A DNA stretch of 64,000 nucleotides from a virus, in IMG/VR virus record IMGVR_UViG_3300032294_002706, positions 62,001-126,000 of that record; one strand, written 5' to 3'. A model generated the notes under the pieces. That model did not search any database. It saw only the letters and a program-made list of their open reading frames with translations, and was not told the DNA's origin. The number at the start of each line of letters is the position of its first letter. Position 1 is the stretch's first letter. Below are positions 29,781 to 57,816 of the stretch, in pieces. The position numbers and the translations under genes are program-made.

Positions 29781-31647
29781 AATCTTCAATATGTATTATT
29801 GGTTCGGGATAGGATTCATCTGTTTCATTAGTCGTCACATTAGGATGATTAATACTCTCAGTTATTGATTCCATTAAATCCTTATTTAGGTTATAGAATT
29901 CTGAATGGACTGATGACGGAGTGTATTCCTTATAGGTACCGTAATTCTTTTCTTTTATTGAATTTAAGATTGTCTCCGATACTGAGTCTGATGCAATTTC
30001 AATTAATTTAGTATCTCTTTTAATGTTCAAGTTTCTTGATCTTTTCTTAGCCAATTCAAGTTGTAAAGCAATATCTTTTATTCTACTAGGCTCTGCTGCA
30101 ATTGACAGCGGTTCGTATTGAGGTTTAATTGATTTAAGAATACTATCAACGTTTCCATCATTGATCACTACGTGTCCTGTAATATTATGAGTATCACTTG
30201 CTACTAATTTATTAAGCGCATTATTCAATGTTTCCTTTTTAAATGGAAATCGTTTTGTCTGTTTTCCTGGATGAATGCAGACCAGAAGGGTTGGTACTCC
30301 AGTTTTTTCAGTTAATGCCTTTGCTGTTTTGCTATGGCCTTTGTGGATTGGCTGAAATTCTGAGATTAACAAATTTACCTTTTTAACTTTACGTTGCTCT
30401 CCTTGTTGTAAATCATAAGTTTCGAAATAGCCTGGAGTCTTTTCATCTCCGACGAATTCACTGAATGATGGAAAATAATTCTCGTATAGTTTTTCTCCCA
30501 TTGCAACCTGATTTAATTTCTCGATTTGGGAAATGAGATTAGCTTTCATTGAATCAGTAAATATCGGAGAATTGATTTTAACCTTCTTTTTACGGAACGT
30601 ATTGATGAAAACTCTGTATATTTCTTTGTAGTTAGGATTCTCTTGTAGGATAGGTATGACGATAGGATCGTTTATTAAGTTCGAGTTAATGTCAAATTCT
30701 TCTCGTTTCAAGAAGTCTGGAACTTGAATATCAAGATCACTGTACTTGTCTCCATATTCATGAATGAATTCTACGAATAGGTGATTAAGCAGAGATACGA
30801 ATCTCTCTTCAACTGTTTCTCCAGAAATTGTGAATGATCTTAGGTCCGAAAGTCTGTAACTCTCAATGAAATTCATTAAGTCGCTCACGATTATCCAAAT
30901 GTAATCATCGCTCTTTTTACCAACTTGAGGTTTAGGTAAGTTCTTTGAATTATCGTAGAATACCGGATCCACTAATTTGGCCAGTATTGCCGAATCGTCC
31001 ATTGTTGATTCATCATCGTAGAATCTAAATACCACTTCATCGATTGAACGATCGTCCACTGAATTTTGAGAATTTTCATCGACGGTTGGGCTAAGTATCG
31101 ATATGAGATGCTTAGTGAATGATTCGGTCTTAAACTTCTCCGATAGCTTTTCCAATGGAGTAAAAATGAACTCTTGGATCTTTACCTGCTGATCTTCAGA
31201 CAACTTTCCTTGGAAAAGAATCGCTGGCTGATTAACGTTTAGGGATCCTGCCCATTTATTAAGTTCCTCCCTATCGTGAATTACGCTAGCTATTTGATAA
31301 TTCTCATCTAGGACTTTAATGTGGCTTATTGTTAGCGGATTCTCTCTACCTGAGGCATAATCAAATCCAAATACGTAATTTTCAGGTAATGATTTTAGTA
31401 TATCACTCCCAAGGCTCTCAAAATGTTTAACGCCTGGTTCGTAGTATTTACTAAGAACCCTGTCGATGTAGCTAATTTTGCTGTCCTTTTTAAAGAAGTT
31501 AAATTTATCTGTACTTGCATCTCTTTTTGCACCAAAGTAGGCGCCTTCTATTTTTTCGTTAATGATGACGGTTTTATTAAGGAGATTCTCCAAGAAGTCC
31601 TTGCCACGTTTTTCATAAACGTCTCTTAAATGTGATAGTCCTGCCAT
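29779..31647 (-). CDS. ligase-like domain fused to HIGH-type nucleotidyltransferase
   Basis: A 622-residue protein. Near residue 30, VIINEKIEGAYFGAKRD looks like motif I (K-x-E/D-G) of the covalent nucleotidyltransferase (DNA/RNA ligase) superfamily, and YVFGFDYASG could be motif III; later motifs are unclear. From about residue 425, NLLISEFQPIHKGHSKTAKAL is a HIGH-type nucleotidyltransferase motif like those of NMN adenylyltransferase and cytidylyltransferases, followed by SIAAEPSRIK. It is preceded by P-loop and HAD genes on the same strand, so an RNA or DNA end-repair complex, or NAD-linked metabolism, is possible. Confidence 0.55.
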   Translation of the reverse strand: MAGLSHLRDVYEKRGKDFLENLLNKTVIINEKIEGAYFGAKRDASTDKFNFFKKDSKISYIDRVLSKYYEPGVKHFESLGSDILKSLPENYVFGFDYASGRENPLTISHIKVLDENYQIASVIHDREELNKWAGSLNVNQPAILFQGKLSEDQQVKIQEFIFTPLEKLSEKFKTESFTKHLISILSPTVDENSQNSVDDRSIDEVVFRFYDDESTMDDSAILAKLVDPVFYDNSKNLPKPQVGKKSDDYIWIIVSDLMNFIESYRLSDLRSFTISGETVEERFVSLLNHLFVEFIHEYGDKYSDLDIQVPDFLKREEFDINSNLINDPIVIPILQENPNYKEIYRVFINTFRKKKVKINSPIFTDSMKANLISQIEKLNQVAMGEKLYENYFPSFSEFVGDEKTPGYFETYDLQQGEQRKVKKVNLLISEFQPIHKGHSKTAKALTEKTGVPTLLVCIHPGKQTKRFPFKKETLNNALNKLVASDTHNITGHVVINDGNVDSILKSIKPQYEPLSIAAEPSRIKDIALQLELAKKRSRNLNIKRDTKLIEIASDSVSETILNSIKEKNYGTYKEYTPSSVHSEFYNLNKDLMESITESINHPNVTTNETDESYPEPIIHIED

Positions 31648-31652
31648 ATTGG

Positions 31653-32261
31653 TTATTTATTAGGCTCAATGCCCAATAGCTTGCAGCATTCGTTATTAAA
31701 TGAAACTACTGATGTTTCATCAAAGTGATTGAAAACGAAACTTAGTCCGTTATTTTTAGTAGTATCCGAAAGGCCTCTTAGCCCGGACTCTATTAAGTTA
31801 GCCATTAACTGTTGTTCTTCAACCGTTGAGTGAGTGCCGTCCCAAGTGTCTTTGACTCTGCTTGAATCGCCAGTTTGACCAGCGACTGACACGACCAGAG
31901 TTTTGGAATTTTTATAGAGATCCGAGCTTACAAGCTTAAGAAACTCAAGCTCAGCTCGACTTCGACCCAGTCGCTTTCTCAGTATTGCCCAAGTATAAGC
32001 AGATATGATAGCTCTGTCAAATATCCAAATTTTATCCTTGTATTCGGGTCGTAAGTTCATTTCCATAATGGTCATGATGTTACCTAAACTGAAATAGTGT
32101 AGTGCAGGAGTTGCATCAAGATCAACAAGATCAAGTGCCTTTACGTGATTCGCAAAATAGAACTTATAGTACTCGATTCTTGGATCCTTGTGAGTTTCAA
32201 TGAATTGATTAATTAGGAACGTTTTGCCTGATCCCCTGGCGCCTTCTATTATTAGTAGCAT
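31653..32261 (-). CDS. P-loop nucleoside/polynucleotide kinase-like protein
   Basis: A 202-residue protein from ATG 32261 (an upstream ATG at 32318 would run deeper into the neighbouring gene). MLLIIEGARGSGKTFLINQF is a Walker A at the N-terminus. IWIFDRAIISAYTWA is a D-R-x-x-x-S motif as in thymidylate kinase and some polynucleotide kinases, followed by a possible lid region (RKRLGRSRAELE). It overlaps the HAD gene by 10 bases. The substrate, whether dNMP or a nucleic-acid 5' end, cannot be decided. Confidence 0.6.
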   Translation of the reverse strand: MLLIIEGARGSGKTFLINQFIETHKDPRIEYYKFYFANHVKALDLVDLDATPALHYFSLGNIMTIMEMNLRPEYKDKIWIFDRAIISAYTWAILRKRLGRSRAELEFLKLVSSDLYKNSKTLVVSVAGQTGDSSRVKDTWDGTHSTVEEQQLMANLIESGLRGLSDTTKNNGLSFVFNHFDETSVVSFNNECCKLLGIEPNK

Positions 32262-32788
32262 AATAATTTTAATCTTTCTACTTTTGAAAATTTTTCTAGG
32301 GATCTTGCTGAATCCCAATCTATTTTAATTATTGTGCTCTTATCGACAAAAATGAAATCGACAGTAGCATTTAGTTCAGTATATAAAAAGTAAGAGGTGT
32401 ACTTAATGATTTCCCAAAGAGAATCCTCAAATATCGTAATTGAGTCAGCTTCAGTAGTTTCTACCAATTCAATGACGGTCTCAGCCTTATCGCTTTCTCT
32501 TCCCAAGAAATAGGTTTTATCGAACCTAATATTATACTCAGAAAGTAGATCCAGAACAGCTGATTCGCAAGCTTTAACTCGATGAGTTATCAAGTAGTTA
32601 AGACAATTGTCTCCAGTTCTGTCAATTGTGTTTGAGATTCCTCTAATGTTGAACTTTTTTGAGAGTGATTCCGGCGAATCGAACCATTGATAGGGTTCCA
32701 TGCCCTTAGCTTCACCGCATGTGTAACCTGGCACCCTAAATAAGGTTTCATCAAAATCAAATATGTTAATGTGTGGTCCGTTTTCCAT
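32252..32788 (-). CDS. HAD-superfamily phosphatase (Swiss-Army-Knife type)
   Basis: A 178-residue protein. HAD motifs: INIFDFDETLFRVP (motif I DxDxT), NYLITHRVKACES (motif II Thr), and TIFEDSLWEIIKY (motif IV with acidic residues). The early D-F-D-E-T-L-F followed by P-x-x-W resembles the HAD domain of SAK RNA-repair proteins. It is encoded directly upstream of a P-loop kinase and a ligase-like gene. It may remove 3' phosphates or dephosphorylate nucleotides; the pairing with kinase and ligase favours end repair. Confidence 0.6.
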   Translation of the reverse strand: MENGPHINIFDFDETLFRVPGYTCGEAKGMEPYQWFDSPESLSKKFNIRGISNTIDRTGDNCLNYLITHRVKACESAVLDLLSEYNIRFDKTYFLGRESDKAETVIELVETTEADSITIFEDSLWEIIKYTSYFLYTELNATVDFIFVDKSTIIKIDWDSARSLEKFSKVERLKLLCY

Positions 32789-37208: not shown

Positions 37209-37817
37209 TTATAAGGATATTTTTGAGGCAATAACAATGCCGAGTATTAATTTAGCGTAGACTAACTTAAAGTGAAAATACGTGAATATGATGTTTAAAT
37301 TTTCTTTAGAAATCTTAACGACTCCCTTCTTAGCATACAGTTTGTTCACTGAATTTATTACTGCAACTGCTTCAGATAGAGGCTTTCCTCCCAATAGAGA
37401 CTGTATGACTTCATTGGAGGTTTCCTTACTTAGTGAAGAGGATCTGTCCTTGATTCCGTTAAGCCATACATCGGCTTCCATCACGATATCTCGCTTAAGA
37501 AAAATGTCCCGAGTCTTTAATCCCTTGTCTATGAGTTTCGCGATCTTATCTAGGCTCTTAACTGAGTTGGCAACGTCACCAATCCATTCAAGTTCGTCTG
37601 GGTACATTGAGATCACCATTTTTGACGGCGATCCATCATGTATGAATTGTATCAAGCTTGGGGTGCTTCTTCTAGTCGCTGAAAATTCTTCATCGAACAT
37701 CGTTGCCATGACCGGAGCCGATGATACTTCCATTGAGAATTCATCCCCAAATGGGAAATTCTTCATAAGCGGGAAGGCTCGGTTAATCTTGGTTCTTTCA
37801 GTAGTGACTTCTCTCAA
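37209..37817 (-). CDS. hypothetical protein
   Basis: A 202-residue protein that I do not recognise. It has DELEWIGDVANSVKSLDKIA and helical segments and ends in a hydrophobic stretch (FKLVYAKLILGIVIASKI) that could be a membrane helix. It lies immediately after an ATAAATAA box. It overlaps a long open frame on the plus strand (37282-37887), which I treat as a chance extension of the polymerase frame because this gene has a promoter, a proper start and operon context. Confidence 0.6.
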   Translation of the reverse strand: MREVTTERTKINRAFPLMKNFPFGDEFSMEVSSAPVMATMFDEEFSATRRSTPSLIQFIHDGSPSKMVISMYPDELEWIGDVANSVKSLDKIAKLIDKGLKTRDIFLKRDIVMEADVWLNGIKDRSSSLSKETSNEVIQSLLGGKPLSEAVAVINSVNKLYAKKGVVKISKENLNIIFTYFHFKLVYAKLILGIVIASKISL

Positions 37818-37835
37818 CTGGCAAAAGCTTTTTGG

Positions 37836-37843
37836 TTATTTAT
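37836..37843 (-). promoter_or_regulatory. late-type box ATAAATAA
   Basis: On the minus strand it lies 18 bases before the ATG at 37817. It lies within the short gap divergent from the polymerase gene. Confidence 0.45.
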
Positions 37844-37862
37844 TTGGTAAATTAAACCAAAT
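37842..37862. repeat. perfect inverted repeat at the 5' edge of the polymerase fragment
   Basis: ATTTGGT (37842-37848) and ACCAAAT (37856-37862) are separated by 7 bases. It could be an operator or a hairpin near the start of the split polymerase gene, between divergent promoters. Confidence 0.5.
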
Positions 37863-37887
37863 TGTGTATTTAAAGTACAACAAGTAT

Positions 37888-39513
37888 ATGTCAAAACAAC
37901 TCGAACAACAAATCAAATCTTTAGATCTAAAGCAGAATGCAATAAAGATCTTAATTAACTCGTTTTACGGAGCCTTCGGTAATCGATATTTTTACTTCCA
38001 TAACAATGATATTGCGCAATCAATCACTTTGCAAGGCCAAGATCTAATCAAGTTCTCAATCAAGGCCGTTAACCACTATTTCACACATAAGTGGCATTTA
38101 GATACAGAGCTTCATGAAAAGCTTGGAATAGCTGATATGAAAATCAATCAGATTGAGAGAGAAGCGGCAGTTTACACTGATACTGACTCGGTTTACGTAT
38201 GTTTTGACTTTGCGATACAGTCGGTCGAAGGTTTACAATTATCTGATCGTGAAGCTCTTGAATTTTGCTTGGGAATTAACCGTAATCGATTAAAGAATTA
38301 TTTTGAACAGGCTTTTGAAAAGTACGCATCTCATTTCAATACAGATAACCGCCAGAACTTTGAGCTTGAGAATTTATCCCGCGCTGGAATTTGGCTTGCA
38401 AAGAAAAAATACGTGCTAAAAGTTTCATACAAAGATAATAAGCATGAAAGACTCTTAGACAAGGAATCATTAATCATTAAGGGCCTTGAAGCAATTCAAG
38501 CATCGTATCCGATTTGGGCACGTAAGCATTTACAAGATCTTTATTGGGAACTCTTAGACTTGGGTTACAGTCTAGATCTTGAAAGAGACCTAATTCCCAG
38601 GTTATCCGCTCTTAAGGACGAGTGTAATCAACTTACGATTGATGAGATTGCCTTTAACTTTTCAGTTAGAGTTTACGAAGATTACGTTAAGAAATTAAAT
38701 CCTCTTCAGCTTGAAACTGGAATGCCAATTTACGGTAGAGCCGCCGCCTATCATAATCACTTAATCAAAAAGACCAATAACCAAAAGTACAATCTCATTC
38801 GTAGCGGTTCAAAGATTAAATTCTACTATGCTGCTACTAACGAACATAATTTTGATATTTTTGCCTATACTCCCGGTGCTTTTCCGGAAGAGTTCGCAGT
38901 ACCGATGGATAGAGACCAACAATTCTTTAGATTATTGGTTGAGCCCATTAATAAACTCTTAGTCGCAATGGGATATTCTGAATTAACTCCAAGCCTTGCT
39001 CGCAAGGTTGACATAATCAAATCAAGAAGTCGCAGCAAGGAGTTCACGCCAGAAGAAACATTCCCATTATATGCAGTTAGTTCAGTTACTCTAGAATACG
39101 CTGAAATTCCGGAAAGCTGTCAACACTTCATCAGTAATCCCGATCTACAGGTTCCGCCAGATCTTTTCTCAACCTACATTTCATCCATTTCAAAATTTGG
39201 TCTGAATACGGTAATTGTGCCAAAGCACGAACTTGTTAAATACCGAGATCGAGTTGCAAAGAAATTAGGAATTGAAGTATCTGATCCTTTTGCAATTCCG
39301 GTTGAAACAATGCAAGAATACTTAAGGGAAAACGGCTGGTCAGAAATAATCGATTCGCCGGATGGTGGTTCATGGTTGCAAACTGACAAGTACGAAAAGG
39401 CTCTTAAAGCCAGAAAGGACATTTATAAAATGGGATACGATCTAGAAAAGGCATATAAGAGTGCAATAAAACCAAAGGCCGAAAAGAAGATAAAAGTAAC
39501 TGATGAAAATTGA
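37888..39513 (+). CDS. 43: family B DNA polymerase, C-terminal part of a split gene (gp43B-like)
   Basis: About 541 residues from ATG 37888. It begins just before motif B (NAIKILINSFYGAFGN, the K-x3-N-S-x-Y-G of the fingers) and has motif C YTDTDSVYVCF with the catalytic DTDS, followed by the thumb (AKKKYVLKV). The exonuclease domain and motif A are missing and are not found elsewhere in this window. Split gp43 genes are known in T4-like phages, for example Aeromonas phage 25, so a second polypeptide should lie outside. After about residue 380 there is an extra region of about 160 residues not usual for gp43. Confidence 0.8.
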   Translation: MSKQLEQQIKSLDLKQNAIKILINSFYGAFGNRYFYFHNNDIAQSITLQGQDLIKFSIKAVNHYFTHKWHLDTELHEKLGIADMKINQIEREAAVYTDTDSVYVCFDFAIQSVEGLQLSDREALEFCLGINRNRLKNYFEQAFEKYASHFNTDNRQNFELENLSRAGIWLAKKKYVLKVSYKDNKHERLLDKESLIIKGLEAIQASYPIWARKHLQDLYWELLDLGYSLDLERDLIPRLSALKDECNQLTIDEIAFNFSVRVYEDYVKKLNPLQLETGMPIYGRAAAYHNHLIKKTNNQKYNLIRSGSKIKFYYAATNEHNFDIFAYTPGAFPEEFAVPMDRDQQFFRLLVEPINKLLVAMGYSELTPSLARKVDIIKSRSRSKEFTPEETFPLYAVSSVTLEYAEIPESCQHFISNPDLQVPPDLFSTYISSISKFGLNTVIVPKHELVKYRDRVAKKLGIEVSDPFAIPVETMQEYLRENGWSEIIDSPDGGSWLQTDKYEKALKARKDIYKMGYDLEKAYKSAIKPKAEKKIKVTDEN

Positions 39514-40624
39514 GGAAATATCGGCCTTCTTGGAAATTCTCTTACGTAAGAGATTTCATGATGTGCCTGAAAAACAAAAGATTGAAGAGCATAGTTCGCG
39601 TAAGCTAAATTTCGCGTGTCCAATCTGTGGAGACTCTGATAAAAAGGTCTCCAAGAAACGCGGTAATCTTTACTTAGACACTGGCGCTTACAAGTGTTTC
39701 AATGACGGCTGTATGGCTTACTTGCCAATAGGCGAGTTCATTGCCAGAATGAGTAAGGAACATGGCATCATGTTACCAAGCTTCTTACTGGACGGAGATT
39801 ATCAACCGGCTAAAGTAAAACGGGTTGAGAACCAGCTTTTGCGATTCTTAACCTCTGATACGAGTCAGCTTGTGACCATCACCGATATCATTAACCGATT
39901 CTCACTAAAACGGCTTGATCTCGTTCCGGAAACCTCTACTGCATTTCAATACATCAAGTCCAGAGATCTTAATCTAATCGAGGATTTTGGAGACTGTCTC
40001 TACACTGATGCAAGCGATAACAAGGTTTACATATTTAATTTTGATCGCCGATCAGGTAGGCTGCTCGGGTTTGCAATTCGTAGCCTAGATCCAAACTCTG
40101 ATCGAAAGTACATCATTAAGTCATACACCGATCTTTCAATTATTTTTGCTCAACGTGGATTGAATAAGGACCTAGTTGAGGATGCTAACTTCTTGAATAA
40201 CTACTTCAATATCTTGAATGTAGATTTCACCAAGCCAATTCTAATGACTGAGGGTCAATTTGATTCGCTGTTACTTGAGAATTGTATTGCAACGTCAGGC
40301 GCATCAAAGGCACGTAGCATTCTTGCGAATTTGGGAGCAAAGGGCGCAACTCGAGTGGTGTTTGACCGAGATAAAGCAGGTAAGACTCAGATGATGAACT
40401 TCATCAAGCAAGGTTACTCGGTTTTTCTGTGGAACAAGGCAATCGATTTTCTAAAAAAGAAATATTCTTCAACCGAAGAGATGAAAGAGATTCAACGAAT
40501 CAAGGACATTAATGATATGTACTCGTTCATTCATTCCAAGGACTCTGAGTACAGTCCGCGTGAATTTAATCAATGGATCAATAGCTATTTTAGCGAAACC
40601 GTGTTTGACATGGCGTACCTATAA
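39503..40624 (+). CDS. 61: DNA primase (gp61-like)
   Basis: A 373-residue protein (T4 gp61 342). N-terminal zinc-binding module: NFACPICGDSDKKVSKKRGN followed by YKCFNDGC, giving CxxC...CxxxxC. TOPRIM-like core: KPILMTEGQFDSLL (the conserved Glu) and VVFDRDKAGKTQ (the D-x-D). It makes pentaribonucleotide primers with the gp41 helicase. It overlaps the polymerase gene by 11 bases, so the two are translationally coupled. Confidence 0.88.
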   Translation: MKIEEISAFLEILLRKRFHDVPEKQKIEEHSSRKLNFACPICGDSDKKVSKKRGNLYLDTGAYKCFNDGCMAYLPIGEFIARMSKEHGIMLPSFLLDGDYQPAKVKRVENQLLRFLTSDTSQLVTITDIINRFSLKRLDLVPETSTAFQYIKSRDLNLIEDFGDCLYTDASDNKVYIFNFDRRSGRLLGFAIRSLDPNSDRKYIIKSYTDLSIIFAQRGLNKDLVEDANFLNNYFNILNVDFTKPILMTEGQFDSLLLENCIATSGASKARSILANLGAKGATRVVFDRDKAGKTQMMNFIKQGYSVFLWNKAIDFLKKKYSSTEEMKEIQRIKDINDMYSFIHSKDSEYSPREFNQWINSYFSETVFDMAYL

Positions 40625-43499: not shown

Positions 43500-44393
43500 A
43501 TGCTAAGAAAAGTAACAGTAATCGGTGGGGCCGGATTCATCGGGTCTCATCTAGTAGACTTGTTAATAGAGAACGGTTTCTCTCCAGTAGTCATCGATAA
43601 TTTCTTAACCGGTAAACTTTCTAATTTGCCACAGAGCGGTGTTGACATTAAAGATTACGATATTACCGGAGATCCCCAGAGGATCGCTGAGATGATAAAA
43701 GGATCTGAATGCGTATTCCATTTAGCCGCATTAACTTCTGTCCAGGAGTCATTAGATCACCCTGACCGTTACACTAACGTTAACGTTGTCGGTACAGCAA
43801 ACATCCTTGAAGCCTGTAGAATTGCAGGAGTACAAAAGCTTGTATTTAGTTCAACTAGCGCGATTTACGGAAATACTTCAACGTTTCCTACTTCTGAGAC
43901 TCAATCCCCTGATCCAATCTCAGCCTATGCTTTATCAAAGCTAGTCGGCGAAACTTATGCAAAGTACTATGCTGAAACAACTGACGTTACCGCGATATGT
44001 TTAAGATACTTTAACGTATTCGGGGAAAGAACTAATCCTAAAAGTTCGTATAGATCAGTAATTCCAATCTTTTTAGAACAATTTAAAAATGACAAGCCCC
44101 TAACGATTACAAATGACGGTCTTCAGCAAAGAGATTTTATTTACGTGAAGGACGTTGCTCTTGCTAATCTAAAAGCAATGAGTCGTACTAAAAGATTTGA
44201 TGTTATTAATGTTGGGTCAGGTAAAACCTGGTCAGTTAATCAAATAGCCGACATGCTTTCAATAAGTAGAGAAAATATTGGATTTAGGCTGGAACCAAAG
44301 ATTAGTTTAGCTGATGTAAGTCGAGCTCAATCGGTTCTAGACTGGAAAGCTACTACTGATTTAGAAGCTTGGATTAAAGATCAAATAGTGTAG
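43500..44393 (+). CDS. NAD-dependent sugar-nucleotide epimerase (GalE/WbpP-like)
   Basis: A 297-residue extended SDR: VTVIGGAGFIGSHLVDLL (NAD-binding GxxGxxG), FHLAALTSVQESL, KLVFSSTSAIYGN, and the catalytic YALSKLVGE. The C-terminal QRDFIYVKDVALA is also typical. It probably interconverts UDP-hexoses for the phage glycosylation pathway. It follows the portal gene after 21 bases and overlaps the convergent gp25 gene by 20 bases. Confidence 0.85.
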   Translation: MLRKVTVIGGAGFIGSHLVDLLIENGFSPVVIDNFLTGKLSNLPQSGVDIKDYDITGDPQRIAEMIKGSECVFHLAALTSVQESLDHPDRYTNVNVVGTANILEACRIAGVQKLVFSSTSAIYGNTSTFPTSETQSPDPISAYALSKLVGETYAKYYAETTDVTAICLRYFNVFGERTNPKSSYRSVIPIFLEQFKNDKPLTITNDGLQQRDFIYVKDVALANLKAMSRTKRFDVINVGSGKTWSVNQIADMLSISRENIGFRLEPKISLADVSRAQSVLDWKATTDLEAWIKDQIV

Positions 44394-50442: not shown

Positions 50443-50884
50443 CTATTTTTACCAATATCGTTTTTAAAGAGTGCTTAACGTTTTCTTTGAAACTTAATTC
50501 CATTTCAAGTCTACGCTTTTCAAGTTCAACATTAAATGCATCATTCAATGCTTTGTTAGTCCTTTGAGAGATTCTGATGTTGTAGCTAAATACGTGATTA
50601 ATTACGGTCAATTCGTAATTATCTAAAATCAATAAGATACTCTTCTCATCGTTTCTAACGTACTGCTTCTGAGAGATTGGGCTCATTAGCAAGTCGCTCT
50701 CTTGACACTTTATCATCTTTCTGAAAATAAAAGCCGCGTCCCTTTCCGCTTCTCCTGAACTCGTCTCAGCTCGACCGGTTGAATCCAACATCCTATGAAC
50801 CTTAATACTAACTTGTTGAGAAAGTCTTTTGAATCTATGAATAGATTTCCTAGTATTCTCTGAAAATTCTTTTTTAAATTCCAT
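50435..50884 (-). CDS. hypothetical protein
   Basis: A 149-residue protein, helical and basic at the N-terminus (KEFSENTRKSIHRFKRLSQQ), with a central KSILLILDNYELTVINHVFS strand and a C-terminal coiled coil. No family is recognised. Operon member. Confidence 0.5.
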   Translation of the reverse strand: MEFKKEFSENTRKSIHRFKRLSQQVSIKVHRMLDSTGRAETSSGEAERDAAFIFRKMIKCQESDLLMSPISQKQYVRNDEKSILLILDNYELTVINHVFSYNIRISQRTNKALNDAFNVELEKRRLEMELSFKENVKHSLKTILVKIDE

Positions 50885-50899
50885 TTTTATATTAATAAG

Positions 50900-51298
50900 T
50901 TACTTTTGACCTTCTCCGTTAAAAAACCCGCCAATTAAATTAATTATGAAGTTTTCATCGATTGGTTTTTTCTCAGGTAATTCGTACTCAACAAAATCAT
51001 CCGCACATCTAATCTCTTCAACGCATTTCCATAAGCTTGGAATATCATAACAAATCTCATTACCTTCCTTGTCCCAAGCTTGCAAAATTTCCCCACTGAG
51101 ACTTTCCTTTTCGTAAAGGTACCAGCTTATCCAATCCTCGCCCTCGTTTCCGTAATATGCTTTAAATAATAAAGTTATTGCGGTTGCGTATGAATCTTCG
51201 TAATTAATTAGATCAACTCCCATCTCAGCCAGTCTAAAGCTACGTTCGCTCTGTTCCTTAATTAGGGTTACTATCTTTTCGAATACTTCCAGTTTCAT
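50900..51298 (-). CDS. conserved phage hypothetical protein
   Basis: A 132-residue protein beginning MKLEVFEKIVTLIKEQSERS, followed by GVDLINYEDSYATAITLLFK, GNEGEDWISWYLYEKE and NEICYDIPSLWKCVEE. This pattern recurs among small acidic proteins of T4-like phages. The function is unknown. It overlaps the upstream gene by 41 bases. Confidence 0.6.
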   Translation of the reverse strand: MKLEVFEKIVTLIKEQSERSFRLAEMGVDLINYEDSYATAITLLFKAYYGNEGEDWISWYLYEKESLSGEILQAWDKEGNEICYDIPSLWKCVEEIRCADDFVEYELPEKKPIDENFIINLIGGFFNGEGQK

Positions 51299-51491
51299 TT
51301 ATAATTATCTTTGATTGATTTTCGATTTGAATCACGTACTCTTCTAGAGCAGTTTCTATTCCGGAAGCTATTAATATGGTTAGTTCTTCCTGCGAAGAGA
51401 CCATTCCCATTTGTTGGGCTAACGCTAGCGCCTGAACCGTTTCTTCAGCTGCTTCCCTTGCGATTTTTTCAATTATTCCTTGAGTTTCCAT
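51258..51491 (-). CDS. small helical protein
   Basis: A 77-residue helical protein (METQGIIEKIAREAAEETVQ...). A TATAATAA box lies 12 bases upstream of its ATG. The 3' end overlaps the next gene by 41 bases, so the C-terminal third is in doubt. The function is unknown. Confidence 0.45.
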   Translation of the reverse strand: METQGIIEKIAREAAEETVQALALAQQMGMVSSQEELTILIASGIETALEEYVIQIENQSKIIINETGSIRKDSNPN

Positions 51492-51502
51492 GTTTCTTTT
51501 AG

Positions 51503-51510
51503 TTATTATA
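51503..51510 (-). promoter_or_regulatory. TATAATAA box
   Basis: On the minus strand it lies 12 bases before the ATG at 51491. Its flanks (GTAGTATAATAACTA) match those of the box at 49515. Confidence 0.4.
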
Positions 51511-51516
51511 CTACGT

Positions 51517-52113
51517 TTATTGTAAAAATTTCAAAATTTTATCCTTGATTCCACTTTGTTTGATTCCTTCCGCTGATTTTGGAGTCAACACAAAATTCGT
51601 GAGACCCCATTCTCGATCAATTTCACCCCAAGTTTTATCAGTGTAAGGTGCTCCCATATTAAGGTCATCTATTGCTACCCAATGTGTAACTTCAGGATGA
51701 TCTATTAGGTATTGCCTAATCTCAATAGCTCGAGTTTGTTCTAGATCCCATTTCGGTGACCATACAAATACTTTCTCGCTGTACCATGTACACTCGTTAA
51801 GGTCAGGTGTGAATGATATCGGCCGCTTTACAATACCTTTCATCTCATAGTAGTCTCCCATCTCCTCAACGGTTGCCCATCTCTTCCAATCCGAACTTAC
51901 AACGATTTCGGCACCAGTCTCTTCAACGATTGCGTTAAGAATGGCAATTGCCTTTCGGTTAAAATTATCGAATCTAACATCAACCGGTCCGTTCTGAGCA
52001 AGCCCCTGTCTAGGATTGGTTTCAGTAAAGTGAGCGCGTTGCTTTTTGTATCGACTGCCCCATTCGGTCGAGAGACATATTACGCCATCATGGTCTAAGA
52101 ATATTACTTTCAT
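51517..52113 (-). CDS. HAD-like protein of the SAK type (HAD_SAK_2-like)
   Basis: A 198-residue protein. VIFLDHDGVICLSTEW is motif I (D-x-D-G-V), IVVSSDWKRWAT is motif II, and HWVAIDDLNMG is the acidic motif. The S-S-D-W signature is typical of HAD domains linked with Swiss-Army-Knife RNA-repair proteins. The substrate is unknown; a nucleotide or RNA-end phosphatase is possible. It overlaps the upstream gene by 26 bases. Confidence 0.65.
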   Translation of the reverse strand: MKVIFLDHDGVICLSTEWGSRYKKQRAHFTETNPRQGLAQNGPVDVRFDNFNRKAIAILNAIVEETGAEIVVSSDWKRWATVEEMGDYYEMKGIVKRPISFTPDLNECTWYSEKVFVWSPKWDLEQTRAIEIRQYLIDHPEVTHWVAIDDLNMGAPYTDKTWGEIDREWGLTNFVLTPKSAEGIKQSGIKDKILKFLQ

Positions 52114-52354
52114 AGTCTTTCTTGATTTGATCGATTAGATCCTGAGGAGCCTCAATCAATTCGAATTTTTGGTCAATGAGTCCAAACTCTGGGTTCTCGG
52201 TCAATTCCTTCAACAGGGAATCGTAATCGGCTGCACTAGGTTTTTCGAAATACCCACAAAAGTGTAGCACATCGATTCCTTGTGAATCTCCGATTCGCTT
52301 TACTGCCGCGATCCCGTGAGTAATGTCAGTTATACTTTTATCTTCTGAGCTCAT
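52088..52354 (-). CDS. small conserved phage protein
   Basis: An 88-residue protein with IDVLHFCGYFEKPSAADYDS followed by a helix (LLKELTENPEFGL). The H-F-C-G-Y-F-E-x-P core looks conserved-family-like, but I cannot name it. It overlaps its neighbours by 17-26 bases. Confidence 0.5.
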   Translation of the reverse strand: MSSEDKSITDITHGIAAVKRIGDSQGIDVLHFCGYFEKPSAADYDSLLKELTENPEFGLIDQKFELIEAPQDLIDQIKKDYESNILRP

Positions 52355-52634
52355 ATACTGAATTTTCTGTTTTAAATCTAACTAGTTCGTAATAGCCTTC
52401 AGCATCCTTCTTCTCTTCAATGATTTCAGTTACTTTAGTGGTTAGCCAATAATCTTGATGTGAGTAACTTCTGGCGGTGACTGAACCTACGAGTAATGAA
52501 CAGCCCACGACCGGCTTGGAATCAATGATCTCTTTGAAAGTGCGATCTTCGTTCCATGCGATAGCTTCAATCCGCTGGCCCTGCTCCTTGATCTCTTCGC
52601 GGCCATCTTTGTGTATTTTAATTAGAGTTGCCAT
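52338..52634 (-). CDS. small hypothetical protein
   Basis: About 98 residues from ATG 52634 (MATLIKIHKDGREEIKEQG). An upstream ATG at 52691 would overlap the preceding gene much more. The protein is beta-rich, with SKPVVGCSLLVGSVTARSYS and a final YELVRFKTENSVYELRR strand pair. The function is unknown. Confidence 0.5.
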   Translation of the reverse strand: MATLIKIHKDGREEIKEQGQRIEAIAWNEDRTFKEIIDSKPVVGCSLLVGSVTARSYSHQDYWLTTKVTEIIEEKKDAEGYYELVRFKTENSVYELRR

Positions 52635-56394: not shown

Positions 56395-56416
56395 AGTTTA
56401 ATTATTATTTTATGCG

Positions 56417-56489
56417 TACCCCTGGAGAGATTCGAACTCCCATCTGACGATCCGTAGTCACCGATTCTAATCCATTGAACTACAGGGGC
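56417..56489 (-). tRNA. tRNA-Arg (anticodon ACG)
   Basis: The acceptor GCCCCTG/CAGGGGT, D arm, anticodon loop CTACGGA (anticodon ACG) and T arm GGGAG-TTCGAAT-CTCTC are all present. CCA is not encoded. Confidence 0.88.
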
Positions 56490-56493
56490 AAAT

Positions 56494-56570
56494 TGGTGAT
56501 CCCGACAAGATTCGAACTTGTAACCCCCAGCTTAGAAGGCTGGTGCTCTATCCAATTGAGCTACGGGACC
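56494..56570 (-). tRNA. tRNA-Arg (anticodon TCT)
   Basis: Acceptor GGTCCCG/CGGGATC, anticodon stem CCAGC/GCTGG with loop CTTCTAA (anticodon TCT), and T arm ACAAG-TTCGAAT-CTTGT. The 3' CCA is encoded (56494-56496). Confidence 0.93.
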
Positions 56571-56581
56571 AGTTGTATTAG

Positions 56582-56589
56582 TTATTATA
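56582..56589 (-). promoter_or_regulatory. TATAATAA box between tRNA genes
   Basis: On the minus strand GGTATAATAACTAA lies 12 bases before tRNA-Arg(TCT). It has the same form as the boxes at 49515 and 51503. Confidence 0.4.
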
Positions 56590-56597
56590 CCAAAAAG

Positions 56598-56683
56598 CGG
56601 AGAGCGGAGGGATCGAACCTCATACGTTTTACCGTACGTCGCGCTTAGCAGGCGGACCCACTCGCCGTCGTGGATCACTCTCC
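56598..56683 (-). tRNA. tRNA-Ser (anticodon GCT)
   Basis: Acceptor GGAGAGT/GCTCTCC, anticodon loop CTGCTAA (anticodon GCT), the long variable arm typical of class II tRNAs (ACGTACGG...CGTATG) and T arm GAGG-TTCGATC-CCTC. Confidence 0.9.
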
Positions 56684-56688
56684 TTTTG

Positions 56689-56775
56689 TGCTTCTGGTCG
56701 GACTCGAACCGACACGGACCTTTCGGTCCAACAGATTTTAAGTCTGTCGCGTGCTACCAATTTCGCCACAGAAGC
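56689..56775 (-). tRNA. tRNA-Leu (anticodon TAA)
   Basis: Acceptor GCTTCTG/CAGAAGC, anticodon stem ACAGA/TCTGT with loop CTTAAAA (anticodon TAA), long variable arm (GGACC-GAAA-GGTCC) and T arm GTCGG-TTCGAGT-CCGAC. Confidence 0.93.
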
Positions 56776-56780
56776 CTTCG

Positions 56781-56862
56781 TACCCAGAGTCGGACTCGAA
56801 CCGACACGTCTTTCGACACTAGTTCCTAAGACTAGCGCGTCTACCAATTCCGCCATCTGGGC
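56781..56862 (-). tRNA. tRNA-Leu (anticodon TAG)
   Basis: Acceptor GCCCAGA/TCTGGGT, anticodon stem CTAGT/ACTAG with loop CTTAGGA (anticodon TAG), variable arm GTC-GAAA-GAC and T arm GTCGG-TTCGAGT-CCGAC. Confidence 0.93.
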
Positions 56863-56865
56863 ATG

Positions 56866-57522
56866 TTACTTTTTAATGATTCTACCAGCTTTCCAGCCGA
56901 TTGGAATTGCTTCGTTCTTCAATATTTTTTTATTTTCATGTTCATTAGTTATCCATATTTTTCCAAATTGGCTGTTTCTGGAACCTACCTGATTTTGTGA
57001 ATTTGCAATACCTATCTTTTTCTTAGTTTGTTCGTTATGCGATTTTCCAGTCCAATCATAAAATACTCCATGCGAACGTCTCCCTTCGGAATATGCTTTT
57101 TTGTTTCCGATTGATAAATTATTTGATCTATTTCTAGACCATTCATCATTTTGACGCAGCTCTTTCATTTTTAAATTTCCTCTAATTCCACGGCTTCTTT
57201 GGATTTCGGAGTTTTTATTATATGTCTCAAACCCTCCTTCTCCACCTATAACCAGATTCATACACATTGGATCAACTAATAAATTCTCATTCACTATTTC
57301 CCTTTCTCTAAATTTCAAAGAACTTCGGTCAGTCAACCATTCCAATATTTCAATCGAATGATTTTTCTTTCCGTGTTTGTTTAAGGATCTTTTCAGAACC
57401 TTGCCGCTTCCGAAATACCCGTCATCTAAATTAGAAGTCGAGTGCATTCCGATGTAGTACTTTCCAGTTATATTACAAGTCACCTTGTAAATGTAATGGT
57501 GAGTATGTTGTTTTCTTGGCAT
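56866..57522 (-). CDS. GIY-YIG homing endonuclease (free-standing, Seg-like)
   Basis: A 218-residue protein. The N-terminal catalytic domain reads HYIYKVTCNITGKYYIGMHS (the GIY...YIG strands in variant form Y-I-Y...Y-I-G), then DDGYFGSGKVLKRSLNKHG and IEILEW with the catalytic region and NLVIGGEGG. The C-terminal part has NUMOD3-like GKSHNEQTKKKIG segments for DNA contact. It sits inside the tRNA cluster between tRNA-Leu(TAG) and tRNA-His, 3 bases from the former, and has its own GATAAATAAA box at 57542-57551. The target is unknown and may be near the tRNA genes. Confidence 0.88.
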   Translation of the reverse strand: MPRKQHTHHYIYKVTCNITGKYYIGMHSTSNLDDGYFGSGKVLKRSLNKHGKKNHSIEILEWLTDRSSLKFREREIVNENLLVDPMCMNLVIGGEGGFETYNKNSEIQRSRGIRGNLKMKELRQNDEWSRNRSNNLSIGNKKAYSEGRRSHGVFYDWTGKSHNEQTKKKIGIANSQNQVGSRNSQFGKIWITNEHENKKILKNEAIPIGWKAGRIIKK

Positions 57523-57541
57523 TTTTGTCCTAGTCTTTTGA

Positions 57542-57551
57542 TTTATTTATC
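57542..57551 (-). promoter_or_regulatory. late-type box GATAAATAAA before the endonuclease gene
   Basis: On the minus strand it lies 20 bases before the ATG at 57522. Confidence 0.45.
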
Positions 57552-57580
57552 TGAGACTAGGTACAAAACTACCTCGTTGG

Positions 57581-57653
57581 TGACCGATGGGAATCGAACC
57601 CACGACCTCTTGAACCACAATTAAGCGCTCTAACCAACTGAGCTACGGCCAAC
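57581..57653 (-). tRNA. tRNA-His (anticodon GTG)
   Basis: D arm GCTCAGTTGGTTAGAGC, anticodon loop TTGTGGT (anticodon GTG), T arm GTGGG-TTCGATT-CCCAT. The acceptor has G at -1 (GTTGGCCG) facing CGGTCACC; the first standard pair is a T-C mismatch and the anticodon stem has one A-C mismatch, so the ends are approximate. Confidence 0.78.
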
Positions 57654-57654
57654 G

Positions 57655-57737
57655 CGGAAGAAGAGGGAATCGAACCCCCAAGGCTTTTACACCCAGCTGT
57701 TTTCAAGACAGTTTCCTCGTCCATTCGGACTCCTTCC
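57655..57737 (-). tRNA. tRNA-Ser (anticodon TGA)
   Basis: Acceptor GGAAGGA/TTCTTCC, anticodon stem with loop CTTGAAA (anticodon TGA), long variable arm and T arm GGGGG-TTCGATT-CCCTC. It lies within 2 bases of tRNA-His. Confidence 0.88.
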
Positions 57738-57746
57738 AATTTTTTG

Positions 57747-57816
57747 AGGTCAGTGTTGGAATCGAACCAACTCCGCAGATTTTGCAGACCTGCCGGCCTC
57801 CACGACCGAACTGACC
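57747..57816 (-). tRNA. tRNA-Cys (anticodon GCA)
   Basis: Acceptor GGTCAGT/ACTGACC, anticodon stem CAGGT/ATCTG with loop CTGCAAA (anticodon GCA), T arm GTTGG-TTCGATT-CCAAC. It is the first gene of the tRNA cluster in the direction of transcription. Confidence 0.88.

What the first reader, a model, noticed from the sequence alone, without database searches (positions are those of the whole stretch)
37818..39513. Split family B polymerase with extra C-terminal region
The gene starts just before motif B and has no exonuclease domain or motif A; the missing half is not in this window. After the thumb there are about 160 extra residues. A perfect 7-bp inverted repeat lies just upstream. In Aeromonas phage 25, gp43 is also split, but there the two parts are close together.
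Basis: partly seen in the sequence, partly recalled or inferred. Interest (0 to 1): 0.6.

Follow-up and report, generated by a model that had tools for sequence, protein, structure and literature searches.

The report
Phage DNA polymerase in two distant genes
A large freshwater phage makes its only recognisable DNA-copying enzyme as two separate proteins from genes 48,000 bases apart, a layout kept under strong selection throughout its lineage, so the two parts most likely join after translation into one working polymerase.

Summary
The window encodes the C-terminal half (541 aa, true start 37888, not 37818) of a T4-like family B polymerase: motif B, motif C, KKKY, thumb, then about 163 extra residues. 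The N-terminal half (457 aa: exonuclease plus motif A) lies just outside the window at record position 50545-51918, 48 kb upstream on the same strand. The cut falls in the turn between the two finger helices. In 18 records that hold both halves (this one plus 17 relatives, including four permuted ~271-kb contigs) there are exactly two complementary pieces, no full-length PolB, N-half always 38-67 kb upstream. Both halves are under purifying selection (dN/dS 0.02-0.10). No PolA or PolIII replicase was found. Best reading: a functional replicase assembled non-covalently from two unlinked subunits, not a remnant. The same finger split, mostly with distant halves, occurs in related huge phages (Lak-A2, LR7565xx). 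A homing endonuclease gene follows the N-half in LR756500, pointing to endonuclease-driven fracture. Splits of gp43 are already known (Aeromonas 25, 44RR, Acinetobacter); the new points are conserved long-range separation across a lineage and a lineage-specific C-terminal extension of unknown function. The upstream inverted repeat is not conserved.

The parts
37888..39513 (+). C-terminal half of the split family B DNA polymerase (541 aa): second finger helix, palm motifs B and C, thumb, C-terminal extension
   Evidence: Pfam PF00136 3.2e-16 and phrog_262/1918 about 1e-61; start set by relatives with a stop 2-4 codons upstream; dN/dS 0.03-0.08
37945..37971 (+). Motif B (KILINSFYG, residues 20-28)
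   Evidence: All but one residue invariant in 18 relatives from 53% identity upward
38173..38190 (+). Motif C (YTDTDS, residues 96-101), catalytic aspartates
   Evidence: Invariant in 18 relatives; the site of inteins in some relatives
38401..38412 (+). KKKY motif (residues 172-175)
   Evidence: K172, K173 and Y175 invariant
38980..39267 (+). End of thumb and conserved core of the C-terminal extension (residues 365-460)
   Evidence: 24 invariant columns in 11 diverse members; every complete homologue checked was fused to a polymerase C-half; no Pfam, PHROG or NCBIfam match
39022..39510 (+). The 163 residues beyond the T4 gp43 C-terminus, including a variable tail from about residue 461
   Evidence: Alignment to T4 gp43; tail missing or different in 253-kb relatives
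39503..40624 (+). DNA primase gene overlapping the stop of the C-half; the pairing is conserved
   Evidence: phrog_47 DNA primase 1.6e-27; same neighbour in nearly all relatives read, often with the same overlap
37209..37817 (-). Divergent gene of unknown function upstream of the C-half; conserved neighbour
   Evidence: Equivalent ~200-aa minus-strand ORF about 70 bp upstream in most relatives
37831..37861 (.).
   Evidence: Arms not conserved, fold not significant; TATTTA-TT-GTA columns invariant

Best explanation
This gene and a second gene 48 kb upstream (record 50545-51918, outside the window) encode the two subunits of one replicative family B DNA polymerase of the T4 gp43 kind. The N-subunit carries the N-terminal and 3'-5' exonuclease domains, palm motif A and the first finger helix. 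The C-subunit carries the second finger helix, motif B, motif C, thumb and an extra C-terminal domain. The cut is at the finger tip, so the two finger helices, the palm and the thumb can pack together after translation without any covalent joining. Shown here: both halves present, complementary, conserved, selected, in the same order, and no other PolB, PolA or PolIII replicase found. Inferred: non-covalent assembly, polymerase activity, and an origin by homing-endonuclease fracture in an ancestor shared with huge phages, followed by rearrangement that moved the C-half next to the primase. The extension is inferred to be a docking domain (for the N-subunit, clamp or primase); its role is the least certain step.
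For: Two PolB pieces in the record, profile 16-148 and 136-238, plus an exonuclease domain in the N-piece. The N-half maps to T4 1-496 and the C-half from T4 538. Against Deep Vent polymerase, N residue 454 aligns to 475 and C residue 9 to 477, i.e. the turn of the finger hairpin. 17 relatives with both halves: exactly two complementary pieces, same strand, N upstream by 38-67 kb. dN/dS 0.02-0.10 for both halves. Active-site residues: exonuclease D98, E100, D199, D293, motif A D379 and motif C all invariant. No PolA, and only a spurious PolIII hit inside gp46. No intron found by Rfam and no intein in either half. Precedent: split 43A and 43B of Aeromonas phage 25 co-purify and have polymerase activity (PMC2988022, citing Petrov et al. 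2010). Origin: homing endonuclease gene (phrog_3339, 1.8e-133) directly after the N-half in LR756500, DUF7487 gene after it in Lak-A2.
Against: No protein data; AlphaFold models of the separate halves are poor (pLDDT 62 and 52), so the interface is not modelled. No endonuclease gene is left at either site in this lineage, so the fracture mechanism rests on distant relatives. The record is probably only about half of the genome.
Confidence: 0.9

Rival explanations
1. The two halves are joined into one chain by trans-splicing (split intein or split intron).
For: Split inteins join split PolB in Nanoarchaeum (PMC4104785) and Aeromonas phage PolB (PMC11923092); LR756500 has a split intein with an endonuclease-like gene at motif C.
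Against: The N-half ends at a stop directly after the finger helix and the C-half starts at its own ATG; neither carries intein sequence at these ends in the relatives read. No Rfam intron in 83.9 kb around both sites.
Confidence: 0.03
2. The C-half is a decaying remnant of a fractured gene and the phage uses another polymerase.
For: Only one half was visible in the window.
Against: The N-half is present; purifying selection on both; conserved in 17 relatives with both halves; no other replicase found.
Confidence: 0.02
3. The halves work apart: the N-protein as a stand-alone exonuclease, the C-protein as something other than a polymerase subunit.
For: They are encoded far apart with different neighbours (UvsX and gp41-type helicase versus primase).
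Against: Catalytic metal-binding residues of the one active site are shared between them (motif A on N, motif C on C) and both are invariant; divergence of the halves is tightly matched (r = 0.98), though shared history alone could give that.
Confidence: 0.04
4. Three-subunit enzyme: gene X (230 aa), whose start overlaps or abuts the end of the N-half in relatives, is a further polymerase subunit, perhaps carrying the clamp-binding peptide that the C-half has lost.
For: X follows the N-half in all 14 loci read; it has a conserved LFGMF-like segment with three invariant residues, resembling the LFDMF gp43 C-terminus of 44RR and PM2.
Against: Short motif, mid-protein; no family match; not homologous to the protein between the Vibrio halves.
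Confidence: 0.12

Closest known systems
Split gp43 (43A/43B) of Aeromonas phages 25 and 44RR
   Same: T4-like PolB cut in the fingers between motifs A and B; two ORFs; for phage 25 reported to co-purify with polymerase activity (PMC2988022)
   Different: Halves lie together in one locus (44RR); seg endonuclease gene or untranslated spacer between them; no C-terminal extension (44RR); separate branch of the tree
Split gp43 of Acinetobacter phages (DLP2, ZZ1)
   Same: Finger split; in DLP2 halves 30 kb apart; ZZ1 reported as split (PMC4177764)
   Different: DLP2 nested within T4-like Straboviridae, opposite strands, no extension
PolB of huge phages Lak-A2, LR756504, LR756502, LR745206, LR756501, LR756500
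   Same: Same finger split with distant halves and no full-length PolB; nearest group in the tree
   Different: No such extension; positions and strands vary; some have an intein at motif C or an endonuclease gene after the N-half
Split PolB of Methanobacteriales and Nanoarchaeum equitans
   Same: Family B replicase in two genes, non-adjacent in Nanoarchaeum (PMC4104785)
   Different: Cellular; Nanoarchaeum joins its halves with a split intein; none here
Fractured genes with split inteins (Dassa et al. 2009, paper not readable here; MIJ3 and LR756500 as cases)
   Same: Essential phage gene split, with an endonuclease gene in relatives
   Different: No intein halves at the finger site

Membership tests
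T4 gp43-type family B DNA polymerase | Exonuclease motifs and palm motif A | tested here: met
   On the N-half: D98/E100, N194/D199, Y289/D293, D379 FxSMYP invariant
T4 gp43-type family B DNA polymerase | Motif B, motif C (DTDS), KKxY | tested here: met
   On the C-half
T4 gp43-type family B DNA polymerase | Single polypeptide | tested here: not met
   Two ORFs 48 kb apart
T4 gp43-type family B DNA polymerase | C-terminal clamp-binding peptide (LFDMF or LDFLFG) | tested here: inconclusive
   Not recognisable; replaced by the extension
Split gp43 (43A/43B) | Cut in the fingers between motifs A and B | tested here: met
   N ends near T4 496, C starts near T4 538
Split gp43 (43A/43B) | Halves adjacent | tested here: not met
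   48 kb here; 38-67 kb in relatives
Split gp43 (43A/43B) | Halves co-purify as an active enzyme | not testable with these tools
   Needs protein work
Split-intein fractured gene | Intein fragments at the junction | tested here: not met
   Sequences of both ends in this phage and its relatives
Split-intein fractured gene | Endonuclease gene at the split | tested here: not met
   Not recognised in this lineage; present after the N-half in LR756500

The most novel reading that the evidence does not exclude
A whole clade of large and huge phages, from this freshwater lineage to the Lak megaphages, descends from an ancestor whose replicative polymerase was broken at the finger tip and has since worked as an obligate multi-subunit enzyme from unlinked genes. 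In this lineage it gained a dedicated assembly or docking domain (the extension), and perhaps a third coupled subunit (gene X).
Probability: 0.3. Interest if true: 0.65.

Novelty: new variant of a known kind. Interest (0 to 1): 0.5.

Why it matters
A replicative polymerase whose single active site is shared between products of genes tens of kilobases apart shows that a core replication enzyme can stay broken over long evolution. It offers natural, diverse pairs for studying how a polymerase assembles from parts, and a source of two-part polymerases for biotechnology. It also warns annotators: each half is easily called a fragment, and polymerase marker trees may use only one half. A 2025 survey of large aquatic phages lists two groups named DNA-directed DNA polymerase besides a DNA polymerase I, and never uses the word split (PMC12619734); whether those phages are this lineage was not tested.

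Tried and rejected
Hairpin operator upstream of the C-half: fold not significant and arms not conserved. Group I intron: none in Rfam. Split intein at the finger site: none. Remnant: rejected by selection and presence of the N-half. PolIII alpha in G005: the weak hit (13 bits) lies in a gp46-like SbcC protein, judged by its sequence. Homology of gene X to the spacer protein in Vibrio henriette and V6Aob: none. Structure prediction: both models poor; Foldseek finds T4 and RB69 gp43 for the C-half (E 3.8e-7) but with low TM-scores and nothing for the extension. Extension in other proteins: not found; the complete ORFs checked are polymerase C-halves. Weak second exonuclease hit at record 30224: a separate PF10108 exonuclease gene, not a third piece.

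Full report
Observation. The ORF at 37282-39513 (+) holds a family B polymerase domain in its lower part. The coding start is ATG 37888: relatives share MSKQLEQQIKSLDLKQNAIKILINSFYGAFGN from that ATG, and several have a stop codon 2-4 codons upstream. The 541-aa product begins 23 residues before NSFYG of motif B, has motif C at 96-101 and KKKY at 172-175, and runs 163 residues beyond the T4 gp43 C-terminus.

The missing half. The record is a virus contig of 129,692 bp; the window is 62001-126000. Searching it with Pfam DNA_pol_B gives two places, 51538-51915 and 99882-100211, covering complementary parts of the profile; the exonuclease profile hits the same 458-codon frame as the first. The N-half is ATG 50545 to stop 51918, 457 aa, with exonuclease motifs, motif A and the first finger helix. 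End to start, the two genes are about 48 kb apart on the same strand. The N-half sits where gp43 sits in cyanophages, upstream of UvsX and a gp41-type helicase, followed by gp47- and gp46-like genes (the helicase, gp47 and gp46 names are by eye). The C-half is the displaced piece (inference): it lies between a divergent ~200-aa gene and the primase, whose start overlaps its stop.

Cut site. In alignment to T4 gp43 the N-half ends near residue 496 and the C-half starts near 538; the roughly 40 residues between are the T4 finger tip. Against archaeal PolB the ends meet in the turn of the finger hairpin (Deep Vent 475 and 477 for N residue 454 and C residue 9). Nothing catalytic is lost. Motif A is on one protein and motif C on the other, so neither can polymerise alone (inference from PolB chemistry).

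Conservation. Viral-contig scans gave dozens of loci for each half. Of 13 contigs first searched with DNA_pol_B, 12 hold both halves, as two complementary pieces, and one (109 kb) holds only the C-half. A second set of 11 added five contigs with both halves. In all 17 the halves are on one strand with N upstream of C by 38-67 kb. For two of the ~271-kb contigs this holds only when they are read as circular; the four ~271-kb contigs look like permuted versions of one genome type. No contig holds a full-length PolB. dN/dS is 0.02-0.10 for each half and about 0.05-0.2 for the extension. PolA is absent and the one weak PolIII hit is spurious.

Relatives and origin. In an ML tree of both halves (27 rows, 781 columns) this lineage groups with the huge phages LR7565xx, LR745206, Lak-A2 and Chryseobacterium phage MA9V-1, apart (100/100) from T4, Aeromonas, Acinetobacter, cyanophages, Vibrio henriette and Atu_ph07. 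All members of that group that were read are split at the fingers, with gaps of about 2.2 kb (MA9V-1), 10 kb (LR756500) and about 100 kb or more in the others on linear coordinates. On the other side, splits in 44RR/A25, DLP2, S-CREM2, henriette/V6Aob and Atu_ph07 are interspersed with intact genes; over the whole tree split versus intact needs at least three changes of state, and the tree does not say how many are splits and how many fusions. Placement of Lak-A2 and MA9V-1 is uncertain (long branches). A homing endonuclease gene follows the N-half directly in LR756500 (phrog_3339, 1.8e-133; DUF7487 plus a weak REase_MTES_1575 match) and a DUF7487 gene follows it in Lak-A2, matching the seg insertion of Aeromonas 25 (PMC2988022). 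That is the best clue to how the gene broke, but nothing of it was recognised in the present lineage.

Extension. A core of about 95 residues (365-460, including the end of the thumb) is shared by all members of the lineage read, with 24 invariant columns; the last 80 residues vary or are missing. The extension is absent from LR756500, LR756504, LR756502 and Lak-A2. No family, fold or other protein matches it. A role in holding the N-subunit, or in docking to clamp or primase, is a guess consistent with its restriction to this lineage and with the overlapping primase gene.

Inverted repeat. TTTGGTT/AACCAAA at 37831-37861 is real but overlaps a better conserved TTATTTATTT-GTA block; the arms drift without compensation and the RNA fold is not significant. 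GTTATTTATT occurs four times in the window (0.31 expected), and upstream regions in this genome are rich in AAATAA and not enriched in Shine-Dalgarno motifs, so the block is more likely promoter or leader sequence.

Literature. Split gp43 is known, and co-purification with activity is reported for phage 25 (PMC2988022). Distantly located halves are described for a minimal PolIII in jumbo phages (PMC7824862), and endonuclease-split polymerase genes in Jug phages (PMC12363816). In the open-access library I found no paper that discusses unlinked PolB halves in phages; subscription papers were not searchable.

Limits. No biochemistry; halves could not be folded together; the record is probably incomplete (relatives reach 253-271 kb).

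Noticed in passing
L005:9808-10500 (record 51908-52600): Gene X, 230 aa, overlaps the end of the N-half by about 10 nt and follows it in all 14 loci read; no family match; conserved LFGMF-like segment resembling the gp43 clamp-binding tail.
   Followed up: partly
L006:8506-10089 (record 30705-32288): Phage-encoded GroEL-type chaperonin, 527 aa (phrog_5725 2.3e-159; Pfam Cpn60 8e-68).
   Followed up: partly
L201:1351-3522 and L230:1372-3315: Inteins inserted at motif C (DTDS) of the polymerase C-half in two relatives; an Intein_splicing domain was confirmed by Pfam for L201.
   Followed up: partly
L377 (LR756500, record 248001-253500): The C-half is itself broken at motif C by a split intein with an endonuclease-like gene between the parts, so that polymerase is in three pieces.
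   Followed up: partly
whole record, 30 nt upstream of 112 ORFs: Shine-Dalgarno motifs are not enriched (12 versus 17 expected) while AAATAA is strongly enriched (35 versus about 2), as might fit a Bacteroidota host or a late-promoter element.
   Followed up: no
window 2749, 25500, 31652, 37835: GTTATTTATT occurs four times on the + strand (0.31 expected); possible phage regulatory element.
   Followed up: no
window 56416-57816: Cluster of eight tRNA genes on the minus strand.
   Followed up: no
L006:7746-8489 (record 29945-30688): Separate DNA_pol_B_exo2-type (PF10108) 3'-5' exonuclease gene just before groEL.
   Followed up: no
OP946502.1 (L115, L132): Acinetobacter phage DLP2 carries its gp43 halves about 30 kb apart on opposite strands, showing that distant splits also occur within Straboviridae.
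   Followed up: partly
window 43500-44393: NAD-dependent epimerase-like gene (MLRKVTVIGGAGFIGSHLV start, judged by eye) directly after the portal gene.
   Followed up: no
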